64,000 nucleotides of DNA, taken from the NCBI RefSeq assembly GCF_023347535.1, contig NZ_CP094473.1, positions 620,001 to 684,000 of the forward strand. Reading direction: 5' to 3'. Position 1 is the first letter of the stretch, and every line of letters starts with the position of its first letter. Positions 24,876-46,465 of this stretch are shown here, one piece after another. The stretch comes from Faecalibacterium sp. HTF-F (lineage in GTDB: Bacteria > Bacillota > Clostridia > Oscillospirales > Ruminococcaceae). The position numbers and the translations under genes were made by a program. The notes under the pieces were generated by a model, which was not told the origin of the DNA, did not search any database, and was given only the letters and a program-made list of their open reading frames with translations.

Positions 24876-24888
24876 CTGGTTTATCGAG

Positions 24889-24941
24889 TGCCGATGGTGG
24901 GGGTCGAACCCACACGGTATTGCTACCAATAGATTTTGAGT
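24889..24941 (-). pseudogene. 3' half of the split native tRNA-Leu(CAA) gene (attL side)
   Basis: Read on the minus strand this begins with the core ACTCAAAATC (anticodon loop with CAA), then a long variable arm (GGTA-GCAA-TACC), T-arm GTGGG-TTCGACC-CCCAC and acceptor CATCGGC plus A. The 5' half lies 21.3 kb away at 46216-46255. Joining the halves at the shared 10-nt core gives a canonical type II tRNA-Leu(CAA). Confidence 0.85.
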
Positions 24942-25402: not shown

Positions 25403-25426
25403 TTCCATACCGACTATATATTACAT

Positions 25427-25475: not shown

Positions 25476-25492
25476 AGATGGGAGGTCAAGTT

Positions 25493-26057
25493 TTGCACAG
25501 CAATAAGAACAGAAAGTTGAAAAAACAGCATGATCCTTGATTATTTCTATGGGCAGTCCGGAGAACTGTTTTCGTTCTACCGCATTCCCAAGGCTCTGTT
25601 TCAGGAGCCACGGTTCCAGAGCCTGTCAACCGATGCCAAAACGCTGTACGGCGTCCTGCTGGACCGCATGAGCCTGTCCGTGAAAAACGGCTGGCTGGAC
25701 AAGCAGGACCGGGTGTTCATCCTCTTCACGATAGAGGATGTCAAGAGGGCATTGTGTTGCGCAGACAACAAAGCGACCAAGCTGCTCCGGGAACTCGAAA
25801 AGTTTGGTCTGATTGAACGAAAACGCAGAGGTCTGGGAAAGCCAAGTTTGGTGTATGTGAAGAACTTTTCAGCAGAATCGTCAAAATCAATATTCCAGAA
25901 TCGTGATTTTCACGATTCTGGAGGCTTCAAAAACGCAAGTCAAGACCCTTCAAAATCACGATGTAATAGGACTAAAGAGAATGATACTGAAATGAGTGAG
26001 ACTGATCCTTTCTATACCCAGACTACCGGAAGGCACGAGATGAGATGCAGGAGTTGA
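25493..26057 (+). pseudogene. Replication initiator A (RepA N-terminal type), frameshifted and truncated
   Basis: The main frame (from 25530) reads DYFYGQSGELFSFYRIPKAL, then LSTDAKTLYGVLLDRMSLS, KNGWLDKQDRVFILFTIEDV and LIERKRRGLGKPSLVYVKNF. This is the RepA N-terminal domain common on plasmids and integrative elements of Clostridia. The expected start (KKQHDP, from a TTG at 25493 behind GGGAGGTC) is in another frame and hits TGA, which indicates a small indel at about 25535. The C-terminus also loses the family pattern after SETDPFY and the next part reads in a different frame. The gene is probably dead. Confidence 0.75.
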
Positions 26058-31909: not shown

Positions 31910-31922
31910 AGATTTCTCCTTG

Positions 31923-32834
31923 TCAGTACGCCCTCAGACTCTCCTCAAAAGTCGGAAAGTCAAAGCCAAGTAGCCGCTCGGTCCGCGTGCAGTTCAGCGA
32001 AACATCCTTGGGACGGAGTTTATTTTCCGGGCCTTCTGGGCAGATGGTACCGGGATCAAGCCCATAATGCTGTGCAATAAGCTGACCCATCTCATACCGG
32101 CTGATACGGCCCTTGCCGCAGCAGTGCAGGATGCCGCAGGCCTGCTTTTCCAATACCGCATCCAGCTGACGGGCCAGAAGTTCCACATCTGTCGGGCTGA
32201 CAAATTCATCTCGGGGCAGAACGATTTCCTTTCTATGTGCAAGACAGTAGCGAGTCTGCTGGATGATATAGCCCTGTACCGCCAGTTCCCGCTGCGCTTT
32301 GATTGAATCAAAATAAGCAAGCTGTTCTTCAGGGATCCGGCCAAATACCAGAGCTGTGCGGCAGATTGCCGCATTAGGATTCGCCCGCAGCAGCTTCTCT
32401 GCTTTTATTTTAAGTTCCCCGTAGTAGTTGATTGCCTGCACCGGCGCATCCTCTGCAGAATTGGCCGTTGTGCCGGGAAACACCTGATCACTAGACAAAA
32501 AGACCATTTGGGCCCCGGCCCGCCGGGCCAGTGCATAAAGGTATTCTGTTGCCAGATAGTTGGTACGGTACGCTCTTTCTGGGTCGTTTTGACACTGGAG
32601 CAGTGATTTTTCTGCCGCAGTATGAAGAACTGCATCGATTGTGTGCTCTGCAAAAACACGCTGCAGCAATTCTGTATCGCAGATATCCCCCTGATAAAAA
32701 AGCCCATTTCCTGTTTTCGGGAAAGCACCCGGTGTCTTATCAATACCGATGATATGATACTTTTCTTTTACAAATCTGACAAACGCGCTGCCGATAAAGC
32801 CATTGCACCCTGTCACCAGAACCGTCTTTTTCAC
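31923..32834 (-). CDS. NAD(P)-dependent sugar reductase/epimerase (RmlD-like)
   Basis: A 303-residue short-chain dehydrogenase with a Rossmann motif GCNGFIG (about residues 9-15) and the catalytic YYGELK (YxxxK, about 137-142), plus FLSSDQVFPG, the RmlD-type Ser region. It probably reduces or epimerises a nucleotide sugar supplied by the first gene of the operon. The GTG at 32834 gives the usual KKTVLVTG start; an in-frame GTG at 32843 overlaps the previous stop and is also possible. Confidence 0.82.
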   Translation of the reverse strand: MKKTVLVTGCNGFIGSAFVRFVKEKYHIIGIDKTPGAFPKTGNGLFYQGDICDTELLQRVFAEHTIDAVLHTAAEKSLLQCQNDPERAYRTNYLATEYLYALARRAGAQMVFLSSDQVFPGTTANSAEDAPVQAINYYGELKIKAEKLLRANPNAAICRTALVFGRIPEEQLAYFDSIKAQRELAVQGYIIQQTRYCLAHRKEIVLPRDEFVSPTDVELLARQLDAVLEKQACGILHCCGKGRISRYEMGQLIAQHYGLDPGTICPEGPENKLRPKDVSLNCTRTERLLGFDFPTFEESLRAY

Positions 32835-32839
32835 TTTTC

Positions 32840-33568
32840 TCACCTGCTTAAAAATTGCTGCGTCTCTGCGGAGAAATCTTCTTTCCGGTAAGCGGTATTC
32901 ATCACAGAACCCGGCACTCCAGTGTGGGCACTTTGCCGTCTGCAGAAGTCTGCAACCGCACTCTGCAGCATCTGCACAAGTTCCCTGTCTTCCGGTTGCA
33001 TTCTTATTTCTGCCGGATTATACAGGAACTTGTTCAACAGCACTCCGGGGTAAAAGCTGCCTTCCCGGTAAAGCTGCGTCGGCAGGGTATAAAGCCGGAT
33101 GTTTTCCGGCAGTTCCCTGCACGGCTTTTGGTAAACGAGTTGTTTTGCATCAAAGCTGCAGTAAGTGTTTGTGCTGTTTTCTACCGCGTCTGTCACTTTG
33201 ATCCGGAAGCGGTCTTCTCCGGTAAAAGGCTCCTTTGCCAGCGCCCACAGATACTCCCGCGAAACAAAATCTGCCGAGATGTGAATGCTGTGTGCCACCA
33301 GCTTGGTCGAGACCATATCCGCAGTTCCGTTCTCAATCAGCTGCCGCGCAGCATTCCAATAACCGGGTCTCATGTACGGACACCGGTTCAGAGCCTGTGG
33401 GTCATCATAGATAAAGATGCAGTCCAGATCATCGCAGTCCGACAGAAACTCCGGATGCAAAAGTGCACTTTTATATCCCACCGAACCAACCGCCAGAAGC
33501 GAAACACCAGCTTGTTCTGCGTAGCAGCGCATTTCTCGGATCAGCGTCTGTGCATTTTCAATCTCCAT
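32840..33568 (-). CDS. Nucleotidyltransferase-fold protein, first gene of the cargo operon
   Basis: A 242-residue protein. Residues 25-52 carry a nucleotidyltransferase-like signature: AVGSVGYKSALLHPE followed by FLSDCDDLDCIFIYDD, i.e. GS then D-x-D on adjacent strands. The rest is not recognised. It may transfer a nucleotide to a sugar or other small molecule at the start of the pathway. The ATG at 33568 has TGGAG upstream and lies 46 nt downstream of an extended -10 promoter, so the longer in-frame start at 33670 is rejected. Confidence 0.6.
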   Translation of the reverse strand: MEIENAQTLIREMRCYAEQAGVSLLAVGSVGYKSALLHPEFLSDCDDLDCIFIYDDPQALNRCPYMRPGYWNAARQLIENGTADMVSTKLVAHSIHISADFVSREYLWALAKEPFTGEDRFRIKVTDAVENSTNTYCSFDAKQLVYQKPCRELPENIRLYTLPTQLYREGSFYPGVLLNKFLYNPAEIRMQPEDRELVQMLQSAVADFCRRQSAHTGVPGSVMNTAYRKEDFSAETQQFLSR

Positions 33569-33620
33569 TCTGTTCTCCATTTCCCACACGGATGTGCAGC
33601 TGATGCTTTTTTTGATAACA

Positions 33621-33651
33621 AGTATAGCATAATTTTCCGGTAAAGGAACAA
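33621..33651 (-). promoter_or_regulatory. Promoter of the six-gene cargo operon
   Basis: Minus strand: extended -10 TGC-TATACT with a weak TTGTTC -35 about 19 nt upstream. It lies inside the N-terminal extension of the longer alternative start of the first gene. Confidence 0.5.
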
Positions 33652-33787
33652 AACGTTCAAAAACCGTCATTCTGTCTGTGTATTCAAAAATTCTTCATGC
33701 AATTTGCCAAAGCCTTCTGCAAAGCCGACCATTTCCATATCAACTGTGCAGATTTTTATTCATTCTACACAAAATTGCAGATTTGCA

Positions 33788-33816
33788 TTGACACACTTTG
33801 AAGAAATCGCTACACT
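33788..33816 (+). promoter_or_regulatory. Promoter of the helicase/PIN/AAA operon
   Basis: -35 TTGACA, 17-nt spacer, -10 TACACT, 60 nt before the helicase ATG. A second AT-rich TATAAT lies nearer the gene (about 33840) without a good -35. Confidence 0.75.
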
Positions 33817-33875: not shown

Positions 33876-36800
33876 ATGGCAGGACCTGGTTCGATAAAAT
33901 TGATTATTGGGTTAGCGGGTGCTATCGTCACTGCCACCACAGGTGGTGTTCTACTTTCGGCTGTTGCAAATAAAAAGGAGGCATCGCCTTCTGATTCATC
34001 CGAAAACAATTGCGGCGATGCTCCCCGCAGTGACCCGCCTGAAGCAGCTGCACAGAATATCTCTCCGACTCCCGCTGCAAAGAGTCAGTCTCAATATGAT
34101 GCTCCCATAGCATCGGCTTTGCACCCCGACAAAGTTACGGAGCCGGTAAAAGAAGAACTCGTTGCTCCTCCACCTGCCCCTTTGCAGGACACTTCCCCCC
34201 AAACAGCCGCTGTACCGAGTGCAGCTTCCTCTGAAACAAGTTCCTCGGACGCTGTCGCAGCCACCGTTAAATACAGTGTTCCGGCAGATATCCCCCCTGA
34301 ATATACCGCAGACAGAAGTGAAGGTGGCAATATGGCCTATAACGAATCCATCGAGTTTGAAGTGTCCAATGGCGAAAATCCTGACGATGAAGCGTACGAA
34401 TACAACGACGATGAAGCATTCGATGAAGAGGACGAATATGAGGATGATGAGCCGGAGATCGATAACCGCTATTTGTCCTATCAGCGGCGGCCGATCTGTA
34501 TCCGGCTGAACATTAGTCCTCACAGCCGTCTGTCCCTCAGCGAAAGGCACCTGTGCCAACGGTTCCCAAATTTTAAGAAATTACAATATGAGAACCTGCT
34601 GCAGCGGGTCGTAGACGAAGTATTCCCGGACGGACTACAAAAACAAGTCTACATCACCAATCTTTCTTTTGAGTCTGACAAAGGTAACTTTCTGGGAATC
34701 CGCCCGGAGATCATAGATGGCGATTTTCTCAGCCGTCTTCTGCCGCCGGGTTATTCTCTACAGTTCCGGGGATACCCCAGCGGAAAAATGTTTGTTGTCG
34801 ATGCTGTCTACGATGTTGCAGACCAGGGACTTCTGTGCTATGAGATTCCAGCAACCGTTATCCCTTACTCTGACCAGGGCCGTGTAAATGATAACTTCCT
34901 GTATCACATTGTAGCAGACACTGATTCGCTTGTGAAATATACACAGGAAAACCTTACCGACTGGAATAACTATCTTGACTGGAAAGAACAGCTTGCCAGC
35001 GTACAGGTTAAAGGATGTAAATATTACAAGCTGACCTATGACGCTGAAAAGAACCGTCTGGTGTTCTGGCTGGCATGTCCGAGTCAGGAATATTTCCAGA
35101 AATTCAAAAAGTATCTGCACCGTGATATACAGGCTTTCAAAAACAATTACTCTTCCGACCCGTGGAAATTCCAGTTTGCAGATGATGCAGGCGCCGATAA
35201 GAATAAGAAAAAATGGGTTGACCGGGGCATAGAACTTGGCCGGTACCGAGGCATCGTAAAAGAATATGCTCTTGCACCGGCATCAGACGCAGAATTTTCG
35301 GACGATTCTGAACTGGAAGAAAGCGATTTCAATGATCCCACCCTCGCCGAAGCCGCCTTGCGCCATGCACTGAAAACCCCTTATATCGTTCAGGTGGCCT
35401 TTGAGTTGAACCGTGCCGATCAGGAGACGATCAACGAACTCAACCTACAGGGCAGCGAAATTGCCGATTATGTCCGAGATAATGTCATTGGAAATTATGA
35501 GTCCAACGGCTTCCTTGCGCTTTCGGCAATTGGCGACCTTGTGCTGATCAAACGTTTCCGGATGGCCATCCACCGCCTTGAAAACTATGAATGCACGGCT
35601 CCTACTCTGGCAGTCTGGCTGTTTAATGTCTCGCAGGCGCGTCTGCCCACGGAGAAAGAGTTCAAAGATCTGCAGATCCAACACTGGCTGAACCCGGCGA
35701 TTGCAGCGAACGAGAATCAGCAGGAGGCCGTGCGCAAAATGCTGGCCGCACCGGACCTCTGCCTGATTCAGGGGCCTCCGGGCACCGGCAAAACCACGGT
35801 GATTGCAGAAGCTATCTACCAGTTTGCTCTCCGGGGCAACCGCATTCTGGTAGCTTCCCAATCCAATGACGCCGTGGATAACGCGCTGGATCGTCTGGCC
35901 AATACGCCTGTGATCCGTGCTGTCCGCCTTGGCCAGAAGGGTCATCGTAAACGCAGAACAGACAAAGGTGTGGTGCAAAAATTTTCCGAAGACGCCGCGC
36001 TGGGCAATTATTATCAGGCACTTTCCCAGCAGATCTCGACAAACTGGCTGAACCCCTGGCAGGAACTGGACACAAACGCCAATGAGTACCAGAAAGCCAT
36101 CCGTGATGCAGAATATTTCAATCAGGACATTGATGAATTCAATCAGGAACTTGCCCTCTGCACAGAAAAGATCATTGCAGAAAAAAAGAACTATTCTGAC
36201 CAGAATGAAGCGCTGAAAAATGCTAATGAGGCAAATCAAATTCTTCAGGTAGAGCGCTTACAGCTGCAGCAACTAATCGATGTGATTCGGCAGGATGGCA
36301 AGGATACCATTCCGTTCTCCTTGACCGATGCTCAGCTGCAAATACTTCAGCCCATACTGGCCCCCGTTCTCTGTGCAGCCAAAGCACAAGGAATTTTCCT
36401 GATTCCTGCCGAGCAGACACTGGATACTGGAAATGCACAAGTCCAAAACGAGCTTCTCTCAACAGCGATCCGGCGTGGTTCCGCTCTTCCGCAGTTACTG
36501 GAAAAGGCCGAAGCCGCATCTGCTCATGGTTCGACAGCCAGTTCTGATTCTCAGGCGCTGCTCTTGCAGAAAGAATCCATTCAGGAGAAGATGGTTGCCC
36601 TTCTCAGCAGCGATGAAGATTTTGATCAACTTGCACGCCTGCGCAGTGAATTTCAGCGTATCCAGAAGATGCTCCAGGAGCAACATGGCGGCTCCGTCAT
36701 CGTGCTGCAAGGTGAGCAATGCTGGCTTTCGAAAGATTTGCAGGACGCTCTCAACAACGATCACCGCGACGAAGCGATTCGTGCCCTGCGCAGCGTAGAC

Positions 36801-38366
36801 ACCGACTGGAAAGCCGCACTTGAGCACAGCGTTGCGCAGCTGTCAGAGTGGTGTTCGGCACAGACTGCGCAGGATACTGCACCTATCCGGGAAGCCCTGC
36901 GCATTTCTGAGGGACGGCTGAAAACGCTGCAGAACAGTTTGAATGAACTAAATGATAAGATCCAGCGCAAGAAGAATACTCTTGCAGAACTTTCTGCGCG
37001 TTACGGCCTGACCGGAGCAGATATCGACTCTGTTCTCTCCGGGCTGCGCGCATTGCAGAAGAAGAACCTTGACCAGAAAGGACAAGTCTCTGATTTCCGC
37101 ACCGACTGGGAAAGCACTTTGCTGAAATTCCGGCAGAAACTGGATGATCCTGATACAGCCGTCTACGACCAGAAATATTACCAGAGCGACTACCTGCAGT
37201 CCTGCAACGTAGTGGGTATTTCCTGCACTGACGATATGCGCAATCTTTCCAGCATTAGCAGCAATTTTGACGCCTTTGATGTTGTGATCATTGACGAGGT
37301 AAGCAAGGCAACACCGCCGGAACTTCTCATCCCGCTGATGAGAGCCCGTAAGGCCATTCTAGTCGGCGACCACCGCCAACTGCCTCCCATGTTCAACGAG
37401 CACGAAAAGACCTATACCGAACTGCTTGACGATCCGGAAAACAGTCAGGAAGAACTGCGTTCCCTGCTGACGAAAGAGAACTTTGACCGCTTCAAGAAGA
37501 TGGTCACCGCCTCCCTGTTCAAAGAGTATTTTGAAAAGGCCGATGACCGGATCAAACATTCTCTTTTGACCCAGTACCGGATGCATTCTGACATTATGCA
37601 GATCATCAACCGGTTCTACGACAATCGCCTGCAAAACGGGCTTTCCCCGGCAGAAGAAGCTGTGCAGCGCAGCCATGGCCTCACCATCCCGGGTGTGGAT
37701 GGCAGCGCATTCATCCGCCCCGATAGCCATGCCTACTGGATTGATTCTTCCCACCTGCCTAACGGTAAAAATGTATATGAGACCTATCTGCGCGGCAGCA
37801 GTTCTGCCTGCAACCTGCTGGAAGTCGCCCTGATCATTGAACTGCTGAAAAAGCTTGCCGATGCCTGCCGGGCCGATTTTGCCGCTTCGGGCGTACCCCG
37901 CAGCGTAGGTGTGATCAGTTTTTACCAAATGCAGATCTCGGAACTGTGGCGCGCACTGCGAGACGAGCGGAAGCAGGGCTTTGACTTCAGTCCGCTTCAA
38001 ATCGATATGAACACGGTAGACCGTTTTCAGGGCAAAGAAAAGAGCATCATTATCACAAGTCTGGTCCGCAACAACTCCAAGGCACGGGCCGGCGAGCATG
38101 TTATTTCGTTTGAGCGCATCAATGTAGCCTTTTCCCGTGCGCAGAACCTGCTGATCATCGTCGGTGCCAAGCACTTATACGAACGGCTGCAGGTCAAGCT
38201 GCCCAATATGGACTCGCCTGGTTCCCATACTGTCCGGATCTATCAAAACATTATGGACGATTTGAATCGGAAGGCCAGCCTGGCAGGCAGCGAAAAACTC
38301 ATTACTCCGGAGTTGGAACAGCGCATCCTTGCGTGCATTCAAGAAAGCGGTGAAGCAGCAAAATGA
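33876..38366 (+). CDS. Large Upf1/DNA2-like SF1 helicase with N-terminal membrane segment
   Basis: A 1496-residue protein. A hydrophobic segment at about residues 8-29 is followed by a Ser/Pro-rich, then strongly acidic linker (about 165-200). Helicase motifs are I GPPGTGKTT (about 632-640), Ia ILVASQSNDAVDNAL, II IIDEVSKA (about 1134), III GDHRQLPP (about 1164), IV QYRMHSDI, V VDRFQGKE (about 1380) and VI NVAFSRA (about 1415). Between Ia and II sits an insertion of about 400 residues rich in coiled coil. The order is Upf1/DNA2-like. First gene of a five-gene operon, probably RNA or DNA processing or defence. AAAAGGAGC precedes the ATG. Confidence 0.88.
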   Translation: MAGPGSIKLIIGLAGAIVTATTGGVLLSAVANKKEASPSDSSENNCGDAPRSDPPEAAAQNISPTPAAKSQSQYDAPIASALHPDKVTEPVKEELVAPPPAPLQDTSPQTAAVPSAASSETSSSDAVAATVKYSVPADIPPEYTADRSEGGNMAYNESIEFEVSNGENPDDEAYEYNDDEAFDEEDEYEDDEPEIDNRYLSYQRRPICIRLNISPHSRLSLSERHLCQRFPNFKKLQYENLLQRVVDEVFPDGLQKQVYITNLSFESDKGNFLGIRPEIIDGDFLSRLLPPGYSLQFRGYPSGKMFVVDAVYDVADQGLLCYEIPATVIPYSDQGRVNDNFLYHIVADTDSLVKYTQENLTDWNNYLDWKEQLASVQVKGCKYYKLTYDAEKNRLVFWLACPSQEYFQKFKKYLHRDIQAFKNNYSSDPWKFQFADDAGADKNKKKWVDRGIELGRYRGIVKEYALAPASDAEFSDDSELEESDFNDPTLAEAALRHALKTPYIVQVAFELNRADQETINELNLQGSEIADYVRDNVIGNYESNGFLALSAIGDLVLIKRFRMAIHRLENYECTAPTLAVWLFNVSQARLPTEKEFKDLQIQHWLNPAIAANENQQEAVRKMLAAPDLCLIQGPPGTGKTTVIAEAIYQFALRGNRILVASQSNDAVDNALDRLANTPVIRAVRLGQKGHRKRRTDKGVVQKFSEDAALGNYYQALSQQISTNWLNPWQELDTNANEYQKAIRDAEYFNQDIDEFNQELALCTEKIIAEKKNYSDQNEALKNANEANQILQVERLQLQQLIDVIRQDGKDTIPFSLTDAQLQILQPILAPVLCAAKAQGIFLIPAEQTLDTGNAQVQNELLSTAIRRGSALPQLLEKAEAASAHGSTASSDSQALLLQKESIQEKMVALLSSDEDFDQLARLRSEFQRIQKMLQEQHGGSVIVLQGEQCWLSKDLQDALNNDHRDEAIRALRSVDTDWKAALEHSVAQLSEWCSAQTAQDTAPIREALRISEGRLKTLQNSLNELNDKIQRKKNTLAELSARYGLTGADIDSVLSGLRALQKKNLDQKGQVSDFRTDWESTLLKFRQKLDDPDTAVYDQKYYQSDYLQSCNVVGISCTDDMRNLSSISSNFDAFDVVIIDEVSKATPPELLIPLMRARKAILVGDHRQLPPMFNEHEKTYTELLDDPENSQEELRSLLTKENFDRFKKMVTASLFKEYFEKADDRIKHSLLTQYRMHSDIMQIINRFYDNRLQNGLSPAEEAVQRSHGLTIPGVDGSAFIRPDSHAYWIDSSHLPNGKNVYETYLRGSSSACNLLEVALIIELLKKLADACRADFAASGVPRSVGVISFYQMQISELWRALRDERKQGFDFSPLQIDMNTVDRFQGKEKSIIITSLVRNNSKARAGEHVISFERINVAFSRAQNLLIIVGAKHLYERLQVKLPNMDSPGSHTVRIYQNIMDDLNRKASLAGSEKLITPELEQRILACIQESGEAAK

Positions 38367-40837
38367 AAATCGATGATGTAAGCCTTTCCTATCCCTTTAT
38401 CCAGTACAGCGTAAGTGTTACGCACTTTACCGAACGGAAGCCAACGGCCATGGAATGGCTGATCTTGGAAGTGATCAAAACGGCCTCCGATAAACCCAAA
38501 ATGTATGCCGATGTTCCTTTCGCTACGCTTCTGGAAGGTATTTTCAACATCACGGACGCCAATCTCCTGATCCTGCCCCGCCTGCTCTCCCTGCAGGATA
38601 TGCAGGTGATCGAAGCCGATGGCTTGAGCGATGATACAGATCTCAGCCAGGTTTCCATGCGCACCCTACGTCTGACGCGCATCGGTGCCGAGATGCAGCG
38701 GACCGGTCAGTTGCCCACTAGACCCGGCAACGATGTTTTCTCTATCTTTTACGACCCCGTAAAGCACCAGCTGCTTGAGAGAGCTGACCGTACGGCTTAC
38801 CGGGATAATTTTTCCGGCATCCCGGTCATCGCAGAAGATGCTGTGTTGGAAACTGACTTTCCGCAAGGGACAATCATTCACTTTTTGCAGCAGAAACAGC
38901 AGGAAGCGGCCCGCGCTTCCCGGTTATCGTGGCTGATGCCCAACACCAGCATCAAACATATCGAGCAGGCCGCCGCTGCGCTGCGCTGGAAAACAGCGGT
39001 CAAAGCATTCCACATGGCTCCCGGGTTTGCCTGCTCTGCCGAAGGTATAGACGACCCGGAACTGAATGCTCGTATTCTGGACAGCCTTGCCTTAGAAGCC
39101 CCCTCTCCTGCACAGCCGCTTCCCCGTGCCAATTTCGAGGACCCGGATGCTGACATTCAGGAGATCGTGCCCTCGGACGAACAAAGTGCAAAGATTCGCG
39201 AGTTTTTGCGCAGTGCTGATTTCTGCATCGTCGCTCAGGATATTTATTCCGATTCAGCCTTCTGCCAGACGCACAAAAAGCGCCATCTCCGAATCGCTTT
39301 TCTATCGGGCGCGTCCGAGTTTCATCTGGAACTGCGTACAGACACCCTTGTGGTTTCTCTTCCGGAGCAGCTTCTGGCACCCGGCACGCTTTTCTGCAGT
39401 CCCTCGCAAACACTTTGTCAGGCAGTTTTCCCGCTGCACGTACAGGAGCATTCCCGGGAGGCAGTGTTTACTTATGTACCGGCGGCACAGCCTCCCCTCA
39501 ATGTGGCTGAAACCTGTGCAGCCTGCACTGATCGATACAGCCGCCAGGACCCACGCATCCTTCTGGTCCTGTACGAACTCGGCCTGAAAGATCTGTTTAC
39601 CGAAAAAGTAAAGGCTCTGGCTTCACAGCAGCCATCTTTGGCCGCTCGGGCCAAATTGATTGAAACGCTCAATCAGTCAAGCAAGGCCGTCTATTGCCAG
39701 AACTGCCTGACACCGGAACTGCTGGAAAGCCTTCTGTTGGATCCTGCAGCAATCCGTTCTGCGTGCACGAGCGTGGATGCGGCCATTGCTTTTCTGACCG
39801 AGTGCGAAGGCATCCGCGATTTCAAACTCTCGGATGCCTTATATCGAAATCTTCTGGAGCAGGTTTTAACCACACTGCCTGCTCCAGAAACTTCAGAAGA
39901 ACTCTATCGGCTTTGGGCACATATTCGTGCTTTCAAGGGTGCCCATCTGATCTGGGTGGGTCAGTCTGGCCGCTACCGCCCGCTGTACCGTGAAACCGTG
40001 ATCCAAAAGCTGCTGCTATCCTTTGATTCGGACACCTTTGGTGAAGAGTACACCCCGGTCGAGCAGGTCATCGGCCAGCTGCGGCGGGCATATCTCCGCT
40101 GTCAGGAGTTGCTGCCGGAATTAAACTTCAGCGCACCTCTCAGTGAAGAAAGCATCCGTGAAGCAGTACTGAACGACCACAGGGAGGAACTTCCGGCGCT
40201 GCGGGAAGAGCTCCGGCTCTGGAACGAGAATCTGGAACGATTCGCTACCCGGGTCGGTCCGGTGGATCACTTTACCGCAAATGCCCCGGCCTTTGCCTAT
40301 GCCATTACTGTAATGCAGCATTTAGCGGAAAGCATCAGCATCTTCTTTGATGATGCCGCCTTGAAATACAGCCGGGTCTGCATTGTTGACACCTGTGCTT
40401 TGATGAATGATCCGGAACTGCCGGCTCTGTTTTCTGACGGTATGTCCATGCTGATCGTCCCTCAGGTCGTGCTGCGGGAACTGGACGGGCTCAAACAGTC
40501 CGCAGACGAGGAAAAAGCTCTGGCCGCCCGGCGTGCCATTCGCAGCATCGAAAGCTATTCCCGTGCCGACTGGTTCAATCTGTCTGAAGAAGGACATCCG
40601 GAACTGCTCAGTCCCGATTTGGGCGACCCGCAGAGTTCAGACAATCTGATTCTCTCGGTCGCGTGCCGCTATATTGCCAAACGGCCGGTACTGCTGACGG
40701 ATGACACAAATCTTCGGAACAAAGCCGCATCTATGCACATTGATGCAATAGGCGGGCGAAGCTTCCGGTTGTCCAAAGAGCACGAGATGTCCGCGCAGCC
40801 GGATTGCCGCACCGAAAAAAAGAAGAAAAAACGCTAA
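38363..40837 (+). CDS. Large protein with C-terminal PIN nuclease domain
   Basis: An 824-residue protein. The last 140 residues or so are a PIN domain: CIVDTCALMNDPEL (first Asp, about residue 675), VVLRELDGLK (Glu), SSDNLILSVACRY and LLTDDTNLRNKA, i.e. four acidic metal ligands of an endoribonuclease. The first 670 residues are not recognised and lack membrane segments. Start and helicase stop overlap (ATGA), so the two are coupled. It is probably the nuclease effector of the operon; the target RNA is unknown. Confidence 0.82.
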   Translation: MKIDDVSLSYPFIQYSVSVTHFTERKPTAMEWLILEVIKTASDKPKMYADVPFATLLEGIFNITDANLLILPRLLSLQDMQVIEADGLSDDTDLSQVSMRTLRLTRIGAEMQRTGQLPTRPGNDVFSIFYDPVKHQLLERADRTAYRDNFSGIPVIAEDAVLETDFPQGTIIHFLQQKQQEAARASRLSWLMPNTSIKHIEQAAAALRWKTAVKAFHMAPGFACSAEGIDDPELNARILDSLALEAPSPAQPLPRANFEDPDADIQEIVPSDEQSAKIREFLRSADFCIVAQDIYSDSAFCQTHKKRHLRIAFLSGASEFHLELRTDTLVVSLPEQLLAPGTLFCSPSQTLCQAVFPLHVQEHSREAVFTYVPAAQPPLNVAETCAACTDRYSRQDPRILLVLYELGLKDLFTEKVKALASQQPSLAARAKLIETLNQSSKAVYCQNCLTPELLESLLLDPAAIRSACTSVDAAIAFLTECEGIRDFKLSDALYRNLLEQVLTTLPAPETSEELYRLWAHIRAFKGAHLIWVGQSGRYRPLYRETVIQKLLLSFDSDTFGEEYTPVEQVIGQLRRAYLRCQELLPELNFSAPLSEESIREAVLNDHREELPALREELRLWNENLERFATRVGPVDHFTANAPAFAYAITVMQHLAESISIFFDDAALKYSRVCIVDTCALMNDPELPALFSDGMSMLIVPQVVLRELDGLKQSADEEKALAARRAIRSIESYSRADWFNLSEEGHPELLSPDLGDPQSSDNLILSVACRYIAKRPVLLTDDTNLRNKAASMHIDAIGGRSFRLSKEHEMSAQPDCRTEKKKKKR

Positions 40838-40853
40838 TGGAGGTGTATATGTC

Positions 40854-41987
40854 ATGAGCCGATCCTATGAATATTCCTATGAACTGCAGCGTGCCGCAAG
40901 GCAGGCAGTGTTCAACGCCCGTGTCCGTGAGACTACAGAGCGGTTCTATCAGCGTTATCTGGAGCAGTTTCAGCAGATGCAACAGCAGGGGTACGAGGCC
41001 TATATTCCGGATGAGATGCAGCGCCTGCAGAACGATCTTTCCCTGATCCGCCATCTTCTTGTGACAGACCCTGCAGAGGCTCGGGAAATCAGCTTCACCG
41101 TCGGCAGCTATATCCGCTCGCTGTGGCCGCTGGGGCGGAGTGCAGCCGCTGAGTTTGCATTTGCAGAGCGCCAGCGCACCGAGGCCCGCCGTTTGGAAAA
41201 GCAGCAGACGCAAAACGCTTTGATGAATGAATATTACCGCTACATCGGCGCGATTCCGCCTGCTGTTGTTCACTTTGCGCAGAACGATCTGCTTGCTCTG
41301 CGGCAGAAACTTGAAAGCGGAGCAGGCGGTTCCGTGTCGGAACTTCAGCATCAGATCAGCGAGATTACACAGCAGGCAGAGCAGAAAGCCGCCGACTGGA
41401 AAAGACAAAAGATCCAGTCACACAAAAAGGCAGATCTTGCTTCCCGGCTGGAAGAAGTACAAGCATCCGTCCAACAGGAAAAAATTGAAGATCAGCAGGC
41501 AGCAAAGGAGTTTCTTGCCCGTTTGGAAAGCCTGCAGAACGATCTGGCCGGCGGCACCTGCTCTGTCGAAGCAGCCGAGCAGGAGATCTCACAGATCGAA
41601 ACACAAGTAGATGATGTTCTGATTACCGAAGAAGTTCGGCGTCAAACCGTCCGTTCCATCGTAAAGCAGCTCCGCAGTCAGGATTTCATGGTCAGTGCGC
41701 CTACGGTCATAAAAAACGACAGCGGCAGTTTTGTGTGTATCACTGCAAAAAAGCCTTCCGGAAAGCGTGCAGAATGTCAAATCGACCTGAAGGGTAAGAT
41801 TCGCTACAAATTTGATAAGTATGAAGGTATGACCTGCCTGAAGGATATTGAACGCTTCAATGTCGATCTGGATAAGATTTATTCTGTCAAACTCTCAGAC
41901 GAGCGCGTTTTGTGGAGTAACCCTGATCGTCTCAGCAAAGATGCTGATCAGATGCCCACGGGCAGCACAGAAAGGAGGCACCTGTAA
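40854..41987 (+). CDS. Coiled-coil protein of the helicase/PIN/AAA operon
   Basis: A 377-residue protein, with residues about 1-270 almost wholly helical and rich in Gln, Glu, Arg and Ala (coiled coil at about 100-270). A compact C-terminal domain (ICITAKKPSGKRAECQIDLKGKIRYKFDKYEG, about 295-330) follows. No enzyme motif is seen. It may be an adaptor between ATPase and nuclease. GGAGG lies upstream of the ATG at 40854, and the stop overlaps the AAA+ gene start (TAATG). Confidence 0.65.
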   Translation: MSRSYEYSYELQRAARQAVFNARVRETTERFYQRYLEQFQQMQQQGYEAYIPDEMQRLQNDLSLIRHLLVTDPAEAREISFTVGSYIRSLWPLGRSAAAEFAFAERQRTEARRLEKQQTQNALMNEYYRYIGAIPPAVVHFAQNDLLALRQKLESGAGGSVSELQHQISEITQQAEQKAADWKRQKIQSHKKADLASRLEEVQASVQQEKIEDQQAAKEFLARLESLQNDLAGGTCSVEAAEQEISQIETQVDDVLITEEVRRQTVRSIVKQLRSQDFMVSAPTVIKNDSGSFVCITAKKPSGKRAECQIDLKGKIRYKFDKYEGMTCLKDIERFNVDLDKIYSVKLSDERVLWSNPDRLSKDADQMPTGSTERRHL

Positions 41988-43828
41988 TGGCTCAAGAATC
42001 ATGTGATCTCTGGCTGGAGCGTTTCAAGCGGGAAGCCGGCATCAAATCGGCTGTGATTCTCTCCGGCAATACATCTGATATCATGCGGAACCCTCAAAAT
42101 AACGGTGTTTATCAGCCCGTCCTGCAGGTAGTGATCGACACCCTGCGAAGCTGTAAGTATACGTCTATCATAAAATGGGATCGTGTGGATGGTGTCGATC
42201 CCAGCCTTTCCGATCCGGTCATTCTCCTCAATACGCCGCCAGCCGCCAGCTCTGATACTTATGATTTGGGAGACGACCTTTCGGATACTTCCGGCAGCAG
42301 TACTCCTGCCTACCGGGATCCGGACGAGTTTTTTCCATATCTGCTTGATCTGATCCGGCATGGCACCGGAAAAACCGCCTTTATTCTGGATTATTCGGAC
42401 TATCTTTTCGGAAACGCCAATTCTCTCTCGGAAAAAGAACGGAACTATCTAGCTACTTTGGGCAAGGCTCTGCAGCTGGGACGTTCTTATGATATGCTCT
42501 CCACAGCAGAGGAAGCAGGAAACATTGTAGTGTTGGTCACAAAGAACAGTGCATCCATCCCGCCGTCTTTCTATCTGAACAATCCCCTCGTCAGCACGAT
42601 CAATATTCCGCTGCCCGGACATACGGAACGAGAAATGTTTACTAAGACTAACCTTTCTCTCCTGCGGATCGATCAGGATCTTACTCATGACATCACGCTG
42701 ATGGCAGATTTCATTGATGCTTTGGACGGCTTTACGTTGTGCGAGACCGCACAGCTTTTCCGTCTCTCCCGGCTGCTTGCCTCAAACTCCGACAGCCGCA
42801 TGACTTTTGAAAAGCTTATCAACCTGTATAAATATGGTGAGAAAACCAGCCCATGGGAGGAACTTTCCAAGGAGAAGCTGACGCAACTCGAGGAACGGCT
42901 GGGGCAGCGGGTAAAAGGGCAGAATGAAGCGATTCGCAAAGTCAAAGATGTAATCATCCGTGCATACACAGGTTTTTCAGGCCTACAGCACTCAACAAAA
43001 CAGCGCAAGCCCAAAGGCACGCTGTTCTTTGTTGGTCCCACCGGTGTGGGCAAAACAGAACTGGCTAAATCGCTTGCAGAATTTGTCTTTGGCGATGAGA
43101 CTGCCTGCATCCGCTTTGATATGTCGGAGTATAACCATGACCATAGCGACCAGCGATTGGTTGGTGCCCCTCCGGGCTATGTCGGCTACGAAGCTGGCGG
43201 CCAGCTGACCAATGCCGTCAAAGAGCGGCCATTCTGCGTACTCCTCTTTGACGAGATTGAAAAGGCCGATGGCAAAATTCTGGACAAATTTCTGCAGATT
43301 CTGGAGGACGGGCGTCTCACTGATGGTAAAGGAGAAACGGTTTCCTTCTCGGAATCCATCATCATCTTCACCTCAAATATCGGCGCAGCACATGTCAGTG
43401 CCGATTTGACTCCTTCTGCGGCTCGGAGTTATTTTATCCAAGAAGTACGGCAGCATTTTATTGAAAACCTGCATCGTCCGGAACTGCTCAACCGTATTGG
43501 CGATAATATTGTTGCATTCAATTTCATTGAAGATCCGGCAGTATTTGCCCAAATTGCAAAGAGCAAGTTCAAGGGTATTGAAAACTTTATCCGCGAACGA
43601 TACAAGGCTGAACTGGTATTTCGTGACGAAACTACGGCTTTTCAGGCAATCGCTGGTAAGGCGGGAAAAGAAAATGGTGGACGCGGCCTGCTGAACGTAA
43701 TGGAAAGCAGCATCATCAATCCCCTATCGGAATTCGTTTTCGAAAATTCCGAATCCTTAGCCGGACGTCAGATTGTGATCTGCCAGTTCGACCCTGCAAA
43801 AGCCTTTTTTACTTTTGAGTTGGAATGA
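41987..43828 (+). CDS. ClpB/ClpA-like AAA+ ATPase with a degenerate first ATPase module
   Basis: A 613-residue protein. Residues 1 to about 290 look like an AAA+ module that has lost Walker A (VILSGNTSDI at the expected place) but keeps an AAA-like core (TAFILDYSDYLFG, IPLPGHTEREMF). Residues about 300-613 are a full Clp-type module: LGQRVKGQNEAI, Walker A GPTGVGKTE (about 350), DMSEYNHDHSDQRLVGAPPGYVGY, Walker B LLFDEIEKAD and IIIFTSNIGAAH. There is no obvious ClpP-binding loop. It probably remodels or loads the operon's nuclease or helicase complex. Confidence 0.85.
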   Translation: MAQESCDLWLERFKREAGIKSAVILSGNTSDIMRNPQNNGVYQPVLQVVIDTLRSCKYTSIIKWDRVDGVDPSLSDPVILLNTPPAASSDTYDLGDDLSDTSGSSTPAYRDPDEFFPYLLDLIRHGTGKTAFILDYSDYLFGNANSLSEKERNYLATLGKALQLGRSYDMLSTAEEAGNIVVLVTKNSASIPPSFYLNNPLVSTINIPLPGHTEREMFTKTNLSLLRIDQDLTHDITLMADFIDALDGFTLCETAQLFRLSRLLASNSDSRMTFEKLINLYKYGEKTSPWEELSKEKLTQLEERLGQRVKGQNEAIRKVKDVIIRAYTGFSGLQHSTKQRKPKGTLFFVGPTGVGKTELAKSLAEFVFGDETACIRFDMSEYNHDHSDQRLVGAPPGYVGYEAGGQLTNAVKERPFCVLLFDEIEKADGKILDKFLQILEDGRLTDGKGETVSFSESIIIFTSNIGAAHVSADLTPSAARSYFIQEVRQHFIENLHRPELLNRIGDNIVAFNFIEDPAVFAQIAKSKFKGIENFIRERYKAELVFRDETTAFQAIAGKAGKENGGRGLLNVMESSIINPLSEFVFENSESLAGRQIVICQFDPAKAFFTFELE

Positions 43829-43838
43829 GGTTCCTAAT

Positions 43839-44405
43839 ATGGGATTTTTGAACCTTGCCTCAGTGCGCCCGTGCACAGAAGCCGAGGGCCCCGGAAAACG
43901 GTTTGCTATCTGGGTCCAAGGCTGCCGCCGCAAATGCCCCGGCTGCTGCAACCCCGAGATGCAGGAACTCCGCCGAAACACTATTGTAGACACGGCAGAT
44001 CTTATCCGCTTGATTCAGACTGCCCGCGAAAATCATGAGATCGAGGGTGTTTCCCTGATCGGTGGAGAACCGCTCCTGCAGGCCGAAGGCCTTTCTGAAA
44101 TCGCTGTCTGGTGCCAATCTGAGGGTCTGTCGGTACTCGTTTTTACAGGCTATACCTATCAGACGCTTCAAACATCCGAGGACAAATCCGTTCAGCTTCT
44201 TCTAAAGCATACCGACATTCTCGTAGATGGTCCTTTTTTACAGGAACTTTACGACGAAAAACGAACCTGGGTCGGTTCTCAAAATCAGCACGTGATCTTT
44301 CTGACAGATCGGTACACGCCGGGAGTCGAATATGAGTACTCTGATCGTACCATGGAACTACTTATTTCCGACAAAGATATCCTGATCAACGGCTGGCCGT
44401 TCTGA
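43839..44405 (+). CDS. NrdG-like radical SAM protein
   Basis: A 188-residue small radical SAM protein with CRRKCPGC (CxxxCxxC, about residues 29-36), GVSLIGGEPLLQ and VLVFTGYTY, as in the activating enzymes of anaerobic ribonucleotide reductase. No NrdD or other glycyl-radical partner is nearby, so its target is probably one of the operon's proteins or a nucleotide. The ATG at 43839 has GAGG upstream; an in-frame TTG at 43815 overlaps the AAA+ gene. Last gene of the operon. Confidence 0.82.
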   Translation: MGFLNLASVRPCTEAEGPGKRFAIWVQGCRRKCPGCCNPEMQELRRNTIVDTADLIRLIQTARENHEIEGVSLIGGEPLLQAEGLSEIAVWCQSEGLSVLVFTGYTYQTLQTSEDKSVQLLLKHTDILVDGPFLQELYDEKRTWVGSQNQHVIFLTDRYTPGVEYEYSDRTMELLISDKDILINGWPF

Positions 44406-44570: not shown

Positions 44571-44805
44571 TCAGATTGTCCGGTTCTGGCTTGTCGACTG
44601 CAGATTCACCATGTGGGCGTACAGCTCTGCCGGGCTGCCCTGCTCGGCCACGGTGCGGATCAGCCGGGAGAGCGCGGTCTGAATGAGGGTCTCATTTTCC
44701 ACGTCCAGACTGGCGGTGGCCTCATCCAGCAGGATGATGGGCGCATCTTTCAGGAAGGCGCGGGCAATGGAAATGCGCTGACGCTCGCCGCCAGAAGGAA
44801 TACCG
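44571..44805 (-). pseudogene. ABC transporter ATPase, C-terminal fragment
   Basis: The minus strand keeps the signature [20 protein letters not shown], Walker [13 protein letters not shown] and a degraded tail. Everything before the signature is missing: it joins directly to an unrelated hydrolase fragment at about 44805. A deletion fused the two remnants. Confidence 0.8.
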
Positions 44806-45335
44806 GAATATTCGTTTTGTCCGGTTCGTAGTGCATATTCAGTGCTTCTGCCAGATCCAGTTGTGTGGGAGAAAGGCTGACCGCACAAGTGTACAAACTA
44901 CCGTGCGGCTGTTCGTTGATAGCGTTGAACACGCCCACGCCGCCCTGTGAGTGACCGGAAAATCCGATGTGTTCCTCATCGAATTTCTGATAGAAGCGGC
45001 TGTCAGGATTCTCATTTTCATTCAGAAGCCATGCCAACGTCGTATCTGCCGAACTGCCAGAGCAAGTGCTTGGGTCTTCATTGCCAATGACGATGAATCC
45101 CCACGAAGCCAGATGCTTGAAGAGTGCTGGATATTTGGAGCTATACACACCCGTGCCATTCACCATCACCACAACAGGATAGCTTTTGGCGCTCTCTGTC
45201 AACTCCTTGGGGTAATAGACATTGATATTCCCCATTCTTCTTCGGTGGACACTTCCATATGTTCCACCTGCGAGGCACCCATCGCCAGATATTTTGCTTC
45301 CAGTTTGCCGTCTGTTTTAACAATCTGCGTGTATA
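44800..45335 (-). pseudogene. Alpha/beta hydrolase (chlorophyllase-like), broken
   Basis: Visible are YPVVVMVNGTGVYSSKYPAL, LASWGFIVIGNED and the nucleophile elbow GFSGHSQGGVG. The upstream part (KTDGKLEAKYLAMGASQVEH) is in another frame, with the break near 45235. The C-terminal part, with the catalytic His, is replaced by the ABC transporter fragment. Confidence 0.75.
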
Positions 45336-45404
45336 GCAATTTTCAATAATACAGCACAATACTTTAACTTTTGAGCAAAAAGAGGTATAACAGAGGCAAA
45401 GAAG

Positions 45405-45926
45405 ATGAGAACTATGCTGCACAATGAAGCTCGAAAATTGATTCTGGAAGCATATGACAAAGGCGTTAGCGTAAAAGAACTGACAAAGTGCTTTTCTGTA
45501 AACAACTGTTCGATATATCGTTTGCTGAAGCGTCGGAACGAAACAGGCAGCTACGAAACTCAAACGAATCTCCGTGGAAAGAAGCCCAAATTGTCAGATG
45601 TAGATCATCAGCACATCCTTTCGCTTCTGGAAAAACAGCCGGATGTAGACCCGATGGGGAAGCGGATTCGGCCCGACTTTCTGAGTCAGCATTTCCCGGA
45701 TTTTCTGGTAGCACACCAGATGAAGCGTATCCGCTTTCACGATCTGTGCCATAGTTGTGCCGGTCTGCTCTATGCCAATGGCGTGAGCCTGAAGGAAATC
45801 CAAGAGTGGATCGGTCACAGTGACATCAGCACAACAAGCAACATTTATACACATCTGGATTTCTCCAGTAAGGTGTCCTCGGCGAATGCAATCGTCAGTA
45901 TCTTCCCAGAAAACACCAAAGTATAA
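45405..45926 (+). pseudogene. Chimera of IS630 transposase N-terminus and integrase C-terminus
   Basis: One open frame of 173 residues. Residues 1 to about 80 ([35 protein letters not shown]) are the IS630 helix-turn-helix region. Residues about 82-173 are the end of a phage-type tyrosine recombinase: [39 protein letters not shown]. The integrase has lost its N-terminal domains and first catalytic Arg, and the Arg of the HDLR box is Cys, so it must be inactive. Its place next to the right end fits the island's former integrase. Confidence 0.85.
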
Positions 45927-45945
45927 GAAACTGAGCAGAAAAAGA

Positions 45946-45981
45946 AAAACAGCCAAAAATCTTTCGATTCTAAGCTGTTTT
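45946..45981 (-). terminator. Terminator of the island-borne tRNA-Leu
   Basis: Minus strand: AAACAGC pairs with GCTGTTT and is followed by a T-run, 10 nt beyond the tRNA 3' end. Confidence 0.65.
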
Positions 45982-45990
45982 ATGATGGAG

Positions 45991-46069
45991 TGCCGATGGT
46001 GGGACTCGAACCCACATGGTTTCCCGAACGATTTTGAGTCGTTTGCGTCTGCCATTCCGCCACATCGGC
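45991..46069 (-). tRNA. tRNA-Leu (anticodon CAA), carried by the island
   Basis: A complete minus-strand cloverleaf: acceptor GCCGATG/CATCGGC, D-arm GCGG, anticodon stem AACGA/TCGTT with loop CTCAAAA (CAA), variable arm CGGGAAACC, T-loop TTCGAGT and discriminator A; CCA is not encoded. It differs from the split native tRNA in the D, anticodon and variable arms, so it is not a simple duplicate. It lies 147 nt inside the right core and in the same direction as the native gene, downstream of the surviving native promoter. Confidence 0.95.
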
Positions 46070-46108
46070 TTATATTCAATTTTGGGACATTAGTACCGGT
46101 TTCTGAAG

Positions 46109-46135
46109 ATTGGAGGGATGTTCAGGAGGGATGTA
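46109..46135. repeat. Right copy of the 27-bp end repeat
   Basis: It matches 25112-25138 at 25 of 27 positions, in the same orientation, with the tandem GGAGGGATG pair. It lies 81 nt from the right core. Probably an integrase arm site. Confidence 0.6.
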
Positions 46136-46215
46136 AGAAATTCTGCTTCGACAAACTTTCAAAATTCAACGCACAATCGTGAATTTCTTGCACAGACAAG
46201 AAAAATCACGAAGCG

Positions 46216-46255
46216 GATTTTGAGTCTACATCGTCTGCCATTCCGACACATCGGC
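46216..46255 (-). pseudogene. 5' half of the split native tRNA-Leu(CAA) gene (attR side)
   Basis: Minus strand: acceptor GCCGATG, TG, D-arm TCGG-AATGGCAGA-CGA and the 5' anticodon stem, ending at the core ACTCAAAATC. Past the core the sequence is not tRNA-like, so this end does not rebuild a tRNA, unlike most tRNA-integrated elements. Confidence 0.85.
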
Positions 46256-46284
46256 TGATATCATGATTCTGAAAGAACATTGCT

Positions 46285-46313
46285 ATTATAGCGGATTTTC
46301 GGAACAAAATCAA
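46285..46313 (-). promoter_or_regulatory. Native tRNA-Leu promoter, now reading into the island
   Basis: Minus strand: -35 TTGATT, 17-nt spacer, -10 TATAAT, about 30 nt before the 5' half-tRNA. It can now transcribe the half-tRNA and then the complete island tRNA-Leu. Confidence 0.8.
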
Positions 46314-46465
46314 GACTGAGTTTCCTGCAGCTGCAAAAATCGAACGTCTGCCGAGAACGGCGGCACCCTGCGCCGTCAGCCGGAAACACTGCCGGAGAGC
46401 CGCCCTGCACAGGGAGCAGCTCTCCGGTTTCTTTGTGTCCGGGAGAAAAAACGAAAGCCCAGTCC

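What the first reader, a model, noticed from the sequence alone, without database searches (positions are those of the whole stretch)
33876..44405. Five-gene operon of Upf1-like helicase, PIN protein, coiled-coil protein, ClpB-like AAA+ and NrdG-like radical SAM
All five genes are intact, in one direction, three of four junctions are overlapping or within 17 nt, and a consensus promoter precedes them. They are cargo of a tRNA-integrated island, a common place for defence systems. Helicase plus PIN nuclease plus AAA+ remodeler suggests recognition and cutting of RNA or DNA, and a radical SAM enzyme adds a chemical step that I do not know from any named defence system. I cannot match the set to a described system.
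Basis: partly seen in the sequence, partly recalled or inferred. Interest (0 to 1): 0.9.

Follow-up and report, generated by a model that had tools for sequence, protein, structure and literature searches.

The report
Mobile five-gene helicase–nuclease–radical-SAM system
A cluster of five genes, carried on a mobile island in a bacterial genome and found in the same order in very different bacteria, looks like a machine that cuts RNA and is controlled by a chaperone-like motor and a radical enzyme; it may defend cells against viruses or other invaders, but this has not been tested.

Summary
Five intact genes lie at 33876-44405: UPF1/Mokosh-like SF1 helicase; scaffold protein with PIN nuclease domain; coiled-coil protein (CC); ClpB-like AAA+ with a dead first ATPase domain; NrdG-like radical SAM (RSAM). 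The operon sits in a 21.1-kb island between copies of a tRNA-Leu 3' end. Catalytic residues are conserved, but 5 of 19 loci lack the PIN domain; four of these (all Treponema) have an Abi_2-family gene nearby. The modelled PIN domain is closest to SMG6, the endonuclease of eukaryotic nonsense-mediated decay; the helicase is of the SMUBP2/DNA2/UPF1 type and closest to Mokosh MkoA, but the Mokosh PLD nuclease is absent. AAA + RSAM recur elsewhere with FHA, kinase and phosphatase genes or with Hhe-like helicase-REase proteins, so with CC they look like an exchangeable control module. Best reading: a mobile system that degrades invader RNA, licensed by RSAM/AAA. Function, target and RSAM chemistry are inferred, not shown.

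The parts
24883..24918 (+). left copy of the tRNA-Leu 3' end (probable att site)
   Evidence: 36-nt direct repeat, 32 of 36 identical to 45985-46020, 21,102 bp apart
33788..33816 (+). promoter-like site TTGACA-17-TACACT
   Evidence: 10 of 12 consensus positions, but the number of such sites in the region is at chance level
33876..38366 (+). SF1B helicase (SMUBP2/DNA2/UPF1 and Mokosh MkoA type); low-complexity N-terminus with one hydrophobic stretch; long poorly conserved insert (about 745-1075) inside the helicase core
   Evidence: AAA_11/AAA_12; MkoA 2.3e-105; SMUBP-2 2.5e-31, DNA2 4e-27, UPF1 3.2e-22 in PDB; 107 residues invariant in 19 loci incl. GPPGTGKT 633-640, DEVSKA 1140-1145, GDHRQLPP 1164-1171
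38363..40837 (+). scaffold protein (mixed N-terminal part, helical middle about 380-660) with a C-terminal SMG6-like PIN nuclease domain (about 668-811) and a lysine-rich tail
40854..41987 (+). coiled-coil protein (CC) with a small C-terminal beta module and a YxGxxC stretch (Y323, G325, C328)
   Evidence: no Pfam family over cut-off; AF2 pLDDT 80, pTM 0.42: helices within 3-275, strands within 284-321, 323-329 pLDDT <50; Y323/G325/C328 invariant in 19 of 19
41987..43828 (+). ClpB-like AAA+ protein: degenerate first AAA-like domain without P-loop (about 1-288) and an active-looking ClpB D2-type domain with a GYVG pore loop
   Evidence: AAA_2 6.3e-50; P-loop 350-357, D422/E423, R503, G397-G400 invariant in 19 of 19; N-domain alignment (by eye)
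43839..44405 (+). NrdG-like radical SAM protein; the ORF can start at TTG 43815, the likely start is ATG 43839
   Evidence: Fer4_12 8.3e-35; C37, C41, C44 and GGEP 83-86 (numbering from TTG) invariant in 19 of 19; under the NrdG cut-off (108.4 of 126.1 bits)
45405..45926 (+). remnant of the island's tyrosine integrase (C-terminal part only, by my reading)
   Evidence: its part from 45643 on is 91.7% (G010) and 93.4% (G012) identical to relatives in which a long integrase-like ORF lies beside the same tRNA
45985..46069 (-). tRNA-Leu(CAA) (45990-46069) with the right copy of the repeat (45985-46020)
   Evidence: ARAGORN, repeat

Best explanation
A mobile, probably anti-phage or anti-invader, RNA-decay system. 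The SF1B helicase and the SMG6-like PIN protein are the effector pair: the helicase binds and moves along a target RNA and the PIN domain cuts it, much as UPF1 with SMG6 does in nonsense-mediated decay and as Mokosh is thought to do with a PLD nuclease. The coiled-coil protein, the ClpB-like AAA+ and the NrdG-like radical SAM enzyme form a separate control module that licenses or resets the effector: the radical enzyme modifies a partner, most likely the exposed YxGxxC stretch of the coiled-coil protein, and the AAA+ threads or remodels the modified protein. Shown: five-gene unit, joint inheritance, mobile location, conserved catalytic residues, recurrence of AAA+RSAM with other partners. Inferred: RNA as target, invader as trigger, physical complexes, radical SAM substrate and chemistry.
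For: Five genes in the same order in 19 loci of four named phyla (Bacillota, Actinomycetota, Spirochaetota, Pseudomonadota); distances correlate, rho 0.84-0.94, 0 of 2000 permutations reach any of the ten values; on plasmids, and in a tRNA-Leu island whose site holds another element in two relatives; rare and patchy: PIN gene in 1 of 150 relatives, CC in 2 of 391 genomes of the class. Helicase closest to the anti-phage MkoA family (352 bits; an Aulosira MkoA beside an MkoB scores 388) and to SMUBP-2/DNA2/UPF1. PIN domain nearest to SMG6 and Nmd4, catalytic acids kept in 14 of 14. AAA+RSAM recur with Hhe-type helicase-REase proteins in Aristaeella and Rhizobium and with FHA/PP2C/kinase. Abi_2-family gene beside 4 of 4 Treponema loci that lack the PIN domain.
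Against: No experiment. 5 of 19 loci lack the PIN domain and no other PIN-like ORF lies in the stretches held. SMUBP-2 and DNA2 are nearer than UPF1, so DNA is possible. Defence-type neighbours (DarT, HsdR-like, HsdS, ArdA) were read without a control. No relative of the PIN protein in 50,697 phage records at E 1e-5 and none of CC in viral contigs searched with one sequence, so no viral link. No complex was modelled.
Confidence: 0.5

Rival explanations
1. A stress-response RNA or protein quality-control system (NMD- or ribosome-rescue-like) that acts on the cell's own RNA and is spread by mobile elements without being defence.
For: UPF1-group helicase with SMG6-like PIN, ClpB-type domain with pore loop, lysine-rich tail on the PIN protein, AAA+RSAM linked to kinase/PP2C/FHA genes elsewhere.
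Against: Patchy presence, mobile location, helicase closest to a phage-defence family.
Confidence: 0.2
2. A DNA-targeting helicase-nuclease system (replication-fork or invading-DNA degradation) in which PIN acts as a structure-specific DNase.
For: SMUBP-2 and DNA2 are the nearest solved helicases; the helicase proteins beside AAA+RSAM in Aristaeella and Rhizobium carry REase_MTES_1575, a restriction-endonuclease-type domain; archaeal RuvB-like proteins are among the PIN matches.
Against: The best PIN match, SMG6, is an endoribonuclease (PMC5031192, passage), and many, not all, of the 50 listed matches are proteins of RNA metabolism.
Confidence: 0.15
3. A mobile-element maintenance or competition system (plasmid stabilisation, exclusion of other elements) not aimed at phages.
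For: Found on conjugative and other plasmids and in a tRNA island.
Against: No toxin-antitoxin-like size or architecture; about 10.5 kb is costly for maintenance (inference). Most of the other loci are contigs whose mobility I did not test.
Confidence: 0.1
4. Chance or decayed neighbours: five unrelated island cargo genes that happen to be adjacent.
For: Decayed-looking genes lie just downstream (44600-45926, by eye).
Against: Same order in 18 further loci, tight junctions, congruent distances.
Confidence: 0.01

Closest known systems
Mokosh type I (MkoA helicase + MkoB PLD nuclease), anti-phage
   Same: Gene 1 matches MkoA at 2.3e-105; helicase and nuclease as overlapping neighbours. The Aulosira plasmid shows an MkoA-MkoB pair by PADLOC; Cyanobacterium HL-69 shows a like pair by PLDc_2 only.
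   Different: No PLD match and no kinase match in the five proteins; the nuclease is PIN; three extra genes (CC, AAA+, RSAM). In a weakly supported tree the two cyanobacterial helicases group with each other, with Aliarcobacter L063 and with the long-branched L056, so their place relative to the five-gene helicases is open.
Eukaryotic nonsense-mediated decay pair UPF1 with SMG6 / Nmd4
   Same: SF1 helicase of the SMUBP2/DNA2/UPF1 group with a partner carrying an SMG6-like PIN domain behind a helical part.
   Different: UPF2/UPF3, SMG1 and 14-3-3-like parts do not appear among the five proteins' Pfam matches (not sought otherwise); sequence likeness of the PIN domain is weak (E 0.003); homology as a pair not shown.
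Hhe / PDC-S37 (DUF4011 helicase-REase proteins, anti-phage or candidate)
   Same: In Aristaeella and Rhizobium plasmids they sit in one gene run with an AAA related over its whole length to the two-domain type and a 4Fe-4S single-cluster protein.
   Different: Our helicase core profile matches them only weakly; nuclease is REase_MTES_1575, not PIN.
NrdG (anaerobic ribonucleotide reductase activase)
   Same: Small radical SAM protein, CxxxCxxC, GGEP.
   Different: Below the NrdG cut-off; no glycyl radical enzyme match in the operon; the genome has its own NrdD and, next to it, an NrdG over the cut-off.
AAA-DUF2997-RSAM cassettes of Actinomycetota plasmids (named here; function unknown)
   Same: AAA ATPase, a small protein with a GPxC motif and an NrdG-like RSAM in one run.
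   Different: AAA is of another type (PF00004, for L060); no helicase or PIN gene in the run.
vWA-MoxR / NTP-dependent conflict systems (PMC7159879, passages read)
   Same: Multi-gene modules that pair an ATPase chassis with exchangeable effectors; PIN domains and, in one subset, a radical SAM domain are mentioned.
   Different: No vWA or MoxR protein here.

Membership tests
Mokosh | MkoA-type SF1 helicase | tested here: met
   PADLOC MkoA 2.3e-105 over the helicase core
Mokosh | PLD nuclease (listed for types I and II in PMC10952713, passage) | tested here: not met
   No PLDc or MkoB match in any of the five proteins
Mokosh | protection against phages | not testable with these tools
   needs an experiment
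UPF1-SMG6 type RNA decay | UPF1-group helicase | tested here: met
   SMUBP-2 2.5e-31, DNA2 4e-27, UPF1 3.2e-22; the group is met, UPF1 itself is not the nearest
UPF1-SMG6 type RNA decay | SMG6-like PIN endonuclease with catalytic acids | tested here: met
UPF1-SMG6 type RNA decay | helicase binds the PIN protein | not tested
   no complex prediction was made
NrdG | over the family cut-off and beside NrdD | tested here: not met
   108.4 of 126.1 bits; the only NrdD found is elsewhere, with its own NrdG
radical SAM superfamily | CxxxCxxC cluster motif | tested here: met
   C37, C41, C44 invariant in 19 of 19
ClpB disaggregase | two active AAA+ domains and full-length profile | tested here: not met
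   ClpB profile matched only at 552-843 of 853, 274.3 of 1232.1 bits; no P-loop in the first domain (by eye)
AAA+ threading unfoldase | Walker A/B, Arg finger, aromatic pore loop | tested here: met
   350-357, D422/E423, R503, G397-Y398-V399-G400 invariant in 19 of 19; their roles are recalled from ClpB
DUF2997 (for the end of CC) | Pfam PF11211 match | tested here: inconclusive
   1 of 17 CC ends matches, E 0.014, while unrelated families reach 0.005-0.03 in the same scan; comparison with four DUF2997 sequences P 6e-4, probability 28%

The most novel reading that the evidence does not exclude
Bacteria have a mobile counterpart of the UPF1-SMG6 RNA-decay pair, and it is switched by radical chemistry: the NrdG-like enzyme makes a radical-dependent modification (glycyl radical or a modified cysteine) in the invariant YxGxxC stretch of the coiled-coil protein, which the AAA+ motor reads to arm or disarm the helicase-nuclease. 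The same CC-AAA-RSAM module arms other effectors (helicase-REase, kinase/PP2C/FHA networks), so it would be a general, unrecognised licensing device of bacterial conflict systems.
Probability: 0.2. Interest if true: 0.93.

Novelty: new variant of a known kind. Interest (0 to 1): 0.77.

Why it matters
A conserved five-gene system with two NTP motors, an RNase-type nuclease and a radical SAM enzyme has no named counterpart in the libraries and paper listings searched. If it is defence, it adds a radical enzyme to RNA-targeting immunity and shows an MkoA-type helicase working with PIN in place of PLD. [quoted passage not shown] The CC-AAA-RSAM module, seen in part with quite different effectors, is a lead to an unknown regulatory chemistry that can be tested with few constructs.

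Tried and rejected
Chance adjacency: rejected by synteny in 18 further loci.

RSAM as the cell's NrdG: rejected; own NrdD/NrdG lie elsewhere, and this one is below the cut-off. A glycyl radical partner in the operon: no Pfam match in the five proteins. L031 has an extra NrdG-like and an NrdD-like gene downstream (NrdD identity by eye); among the 12 loci only this one shows a second RSAM match.

PIN as the invariant core: rejected; absent in L033 and L039-L042. L033 and L071 are the same contig by length and gene layout (23,574 bases), counted once.

CC structure search: no PDB match with E below 0.001; the model has pTM 0.42, so this says little. The N-terminal part of the PIN protein shows no clear match, but those lists are filled by the PIN domain, so this is no evidence of a new fold. 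In one search a Thermus protein of unknown function (3ix7) ties with SMG6/EST1A at the top.

CC against the coiled-coil proteins of other AAA-RSAM loci: profile comparison with five of them gives P 0.003, probability 10.5%. Iterated HMM search of 1414 ORFs from 18 loci finds only the Geminocystis protein (E 6e-7); the next best match is 0.2-0.28. So the others (L066-L070, L076, L077) are equated with CC by position, look and a conserved cysteine seen by eye only; an automatic alignment did not line that cysteine up with C328. The 141-aa protein of the Actinomycetota cassettes does not match CC (P 0.82).

Profile search with the PIN alignment: 2 proteins only, so it did not show other effector domains. 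DUF2997 in 199 genomes of the phylum: 1 match, not followed. E. coli: no near match to the Moellerella locus in 20,395 records. Viral contigs: none with one CC sequence.

Helicase tree: only 6 of 21 inner branches well supported; L056, L063 and others have long branches that meet, so I claim no grouping. AAA searched whole is swamped by ClpB/ClpC-type matches.

Mended in this version: identity figures of the island site, the place of the Geminocystis CC-type gene, the wording on PIN matches, on DUF2997, on the helicase tree and on the Treponema neighbours.
Full report
WHAT IS THERE. The five ORFs are intact and at the stated places. Gene junctions are a 4-nt overlap, a 16-nt gap, a 1-nt overlap, and either a 14-nt overlap (TTG 43815) or a 10-nt gap (ATG 43839; the 12 aligned homologues begin within about three residues of it). 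Pfam gives AAA_11/AAA_12, PIN_4, nothing over cut-off, AAA_2, and Fer4_12/Radical_SAM. The promoter-like site 60 nt upstream exists, but such sites are at chance level in this region (8 found, 8.4 expected).

THE ISLAND. A 36-nt copy of the tRNA-Leu 3' end (24883-24918 against 45985-46020, 32 of 36 identical) lies 21,102 bp away. GC per kb is 0.433-0.545 between the copies and 0.505-0.670 outside. The integrase end plus tRNA is 91.7% identical in relative G010 (45643-46328) and 93.4% in G012 (45643-46261). There a long integrase-like ORF (498 aa in G010; 447 aa up to the end of the fetched stretch of G012; identity by eye) lies beside the same tRNA; the ORFs behind it look the same in the two relatives and do not match the window's island. 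The PIN gene is absent from both. So the site is a re-used integration point, and the window's integrase is a remnant.

CO-OCCURRENCE. A scan of one genome per species with a CC alignment gave 79 pattern matches, of which 12 encode a CC relative; all 12 loci have the five genes in one order on one strand. Plasmid searches gave 10 records with CC; I fetched one per organism, 5 of 10 records, and 5 of 5 are complete and in the same order. A search of 398 genomes of the phylum with the AAA N-domain gave 8 matches: the window, one further complete locus (G840, L064) and six weak ones discussed below. G165 (L071) is the L033 contig again. That makes 19 loci with the window. They were found through CC or AAA, so they show that in the CC-bearing loci seen the other four genes are present; they do not measure how often helicase or PIN relatives occur alone. 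The system is rare: PIN gene in 1 of 150 relatives at E 1e-6, CC in 2 of 391 genomes of the class at E 1e-5; yet 456 CC proteins were found in the large protein set, where only 7999 candidates were scored. Pairwise distances of the five families over the 19 loci correlate (Spearman 0.84-0.94; 0 of 2000 permutations reach any of the ten values). Related rows share history, so this shows joint inheritance, not contact.

CATALYTIC PARTS (19 loci). Helicase: 107 invariant residues, including the P-loop, DEVSKA and GDHRQLPP motifs. AAA: 151 invariant residues, including P-loop, D422/E423, R503 and pore loop GYVG; the first domain has no P-loop but keeps a Walker-B-like LDYSD in most rows (by eye). 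RSAM: 44 invariant, with CxxxCxxC and GGEP. CC: 17 invariant, with Y323, G325 and C328 in a stretch that AlphaFold2 models with low confidence, as it does the whole end from 344. PIN protein: only 3 invariant, because it diverges fast and the PIN domain is missing in L033 and L039-L042; in the 14 loci that have it, D676, E706, D760 and D781 are all kept. No other PIN-like ORF lies in the stretches held for those five loci.

PIN LOSS AND ABI_2. In 4 of 4 Treponema loci a gene of the Abi_2 family (Pfam match shown for L041; the other three are 58-71% identical to it) lies near the end of the operon on the other strand; the other 14 of the 18 loci tested have none in the stretches held. A second RNase family may stand in for PIN; equally, the four may share one old insertion site. 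Abi_2 as a HEPN RNase is recalled, not tested.

THE CONTROL MODULE. The six weak AAA matches each have an RSAM gene next to them or one gene away (6 of 6), and no match to our helicase, PIN or CC profiles in the 5.7-15 kb held. Of 12 neighbour genes that I scanned there, three loci show FHA genes, two of these also kinases, one also PP2C. Aristaeella has an Hhe/PDC-S37 helicase-REase protein, kinase, a 430-aa unknown protein, FHA, 4Fe-4S single-cluster protein, AAA and a phosphatase in one run; Rhizobium has AAA, 4Fe-4S single-cluster protein, a fused kinase-DUF4011-helicase-REase protein and a 452-aa protein. The Geminocystis plasmid has a protein with a CC-type end (E 6e-7 among 1414 ORFs) upstream of its AAA, with two toxin-antitoxin-like genes between and the nearest annotated 4Fe-4S single-cluster gene about 8.7 kb away, so that locus is looser. 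For the other loci the tie between their unknown proteins and CC is suggestive only (P 0.003; by eye). Actinomycetota plasmids have a further AAA-DUF2997-RSAM cassette; that the end of CC is DUF2997-like is a lead, no more (P 6e-4 at 28% probability; 1 of 17 in Pfam at 0.014, where unrelated families score alike). The AAA+RSAM pairing is well supported; CC as a third fixed member of a general module rests on the weaker ties.

MECHANISM. Proposed: (1) target RNA or an invader protein is sensed, by an unknown part; (2) RSAM modifies a partner, most likely the YxGxxC stretch of CC; (3) AAA engages CC through its pore loop and releases or loads helicase-PIN; (4) the helicase feeds RNA to PIN. Steps 1-4 are all inferred; the parts and their conservation are shown. 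A point against a glycyl radical is that hosts I recall as aerobic (Polaromonas, Acinetobacter, Leisingera) carry the system, and such radicals are oxygen-sensitive (recalled); cysteine chemistry or another substrate would fit better there.

PAPERS. Paper searches listed no description of this set; the lists of 67 (20 of 37 shown) and 82 (12 of 223 shown) were capped, and the library lacks most subscription papers and bioRxiv as such. Passages were read of PMC7159879, PMC4284462, PMC11291487, PMC10250203, PMC10952713, PMC5031192, PMC11463774, PMC10853773, PMC8297831 and PMC7641849; the rest were seen as listings. PMC11291487 states that Mokosh degrades foreign viral transcripts.

VERDICT. A real, conserved, mobile five-gene system without a name that I could find; probably defence by RNA decay (0.5); control by radical SAM chemistry is the most novel and least tested part.

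Noticed in passing
L039-L042, about 13.6-17.1 kb: Abi_2-family gene beside the system in all four Treponema loci, where the PIN domain is missing; in L040-L042 it is followed by two unknown genes of about 245-257 and 205-212 aa.
   Followed up: partly
window 33876-34000; L032, L034, L037: The helicase has an N-terminal hydrophobic stretch (mean hydropathy 1.8-2.0 over 19 residues) in 4 of 19 loci only; perhaps a membrane anchor.
   Followed up: partly
window 29337-33670, minus strand: Four-gene run: GNAT/radical SAM protein, DegT-like aminotransferase, NAD-dependent epimerase and a nucleotidyltransferase-like protein; other cargo of the same island (identities by eye).
   Followed up: no
window 24920-26057: Excisionase-like and RepA-like ORFs just inside the left repeat, so the island looks like a decayed integrative element (by eye).
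   Followed up: no
L077 11473-17733: A 2086-aa protein joins a kinase, DUF4011, an SF1 helicase and REase_MTES_1575 directly behind an AAA - 4Fe-4S single-cluster pair on a conjugative Rhizobium plasmid.
   Followed up: partly
L060, L073, L074, L075: AAA - 141 aa - DUF2997 - unknown/HHH protein - NrdG-like RSAM cassette on Actinomycetota plasmids, function unknown.
   Followed up: partly
window 44600-45235, minus strand: Fragments that look like an ABC transporter ATPase and an alpha/beta hydrolase between the operon and the integrase remnant (by eye).
   Followed up: no
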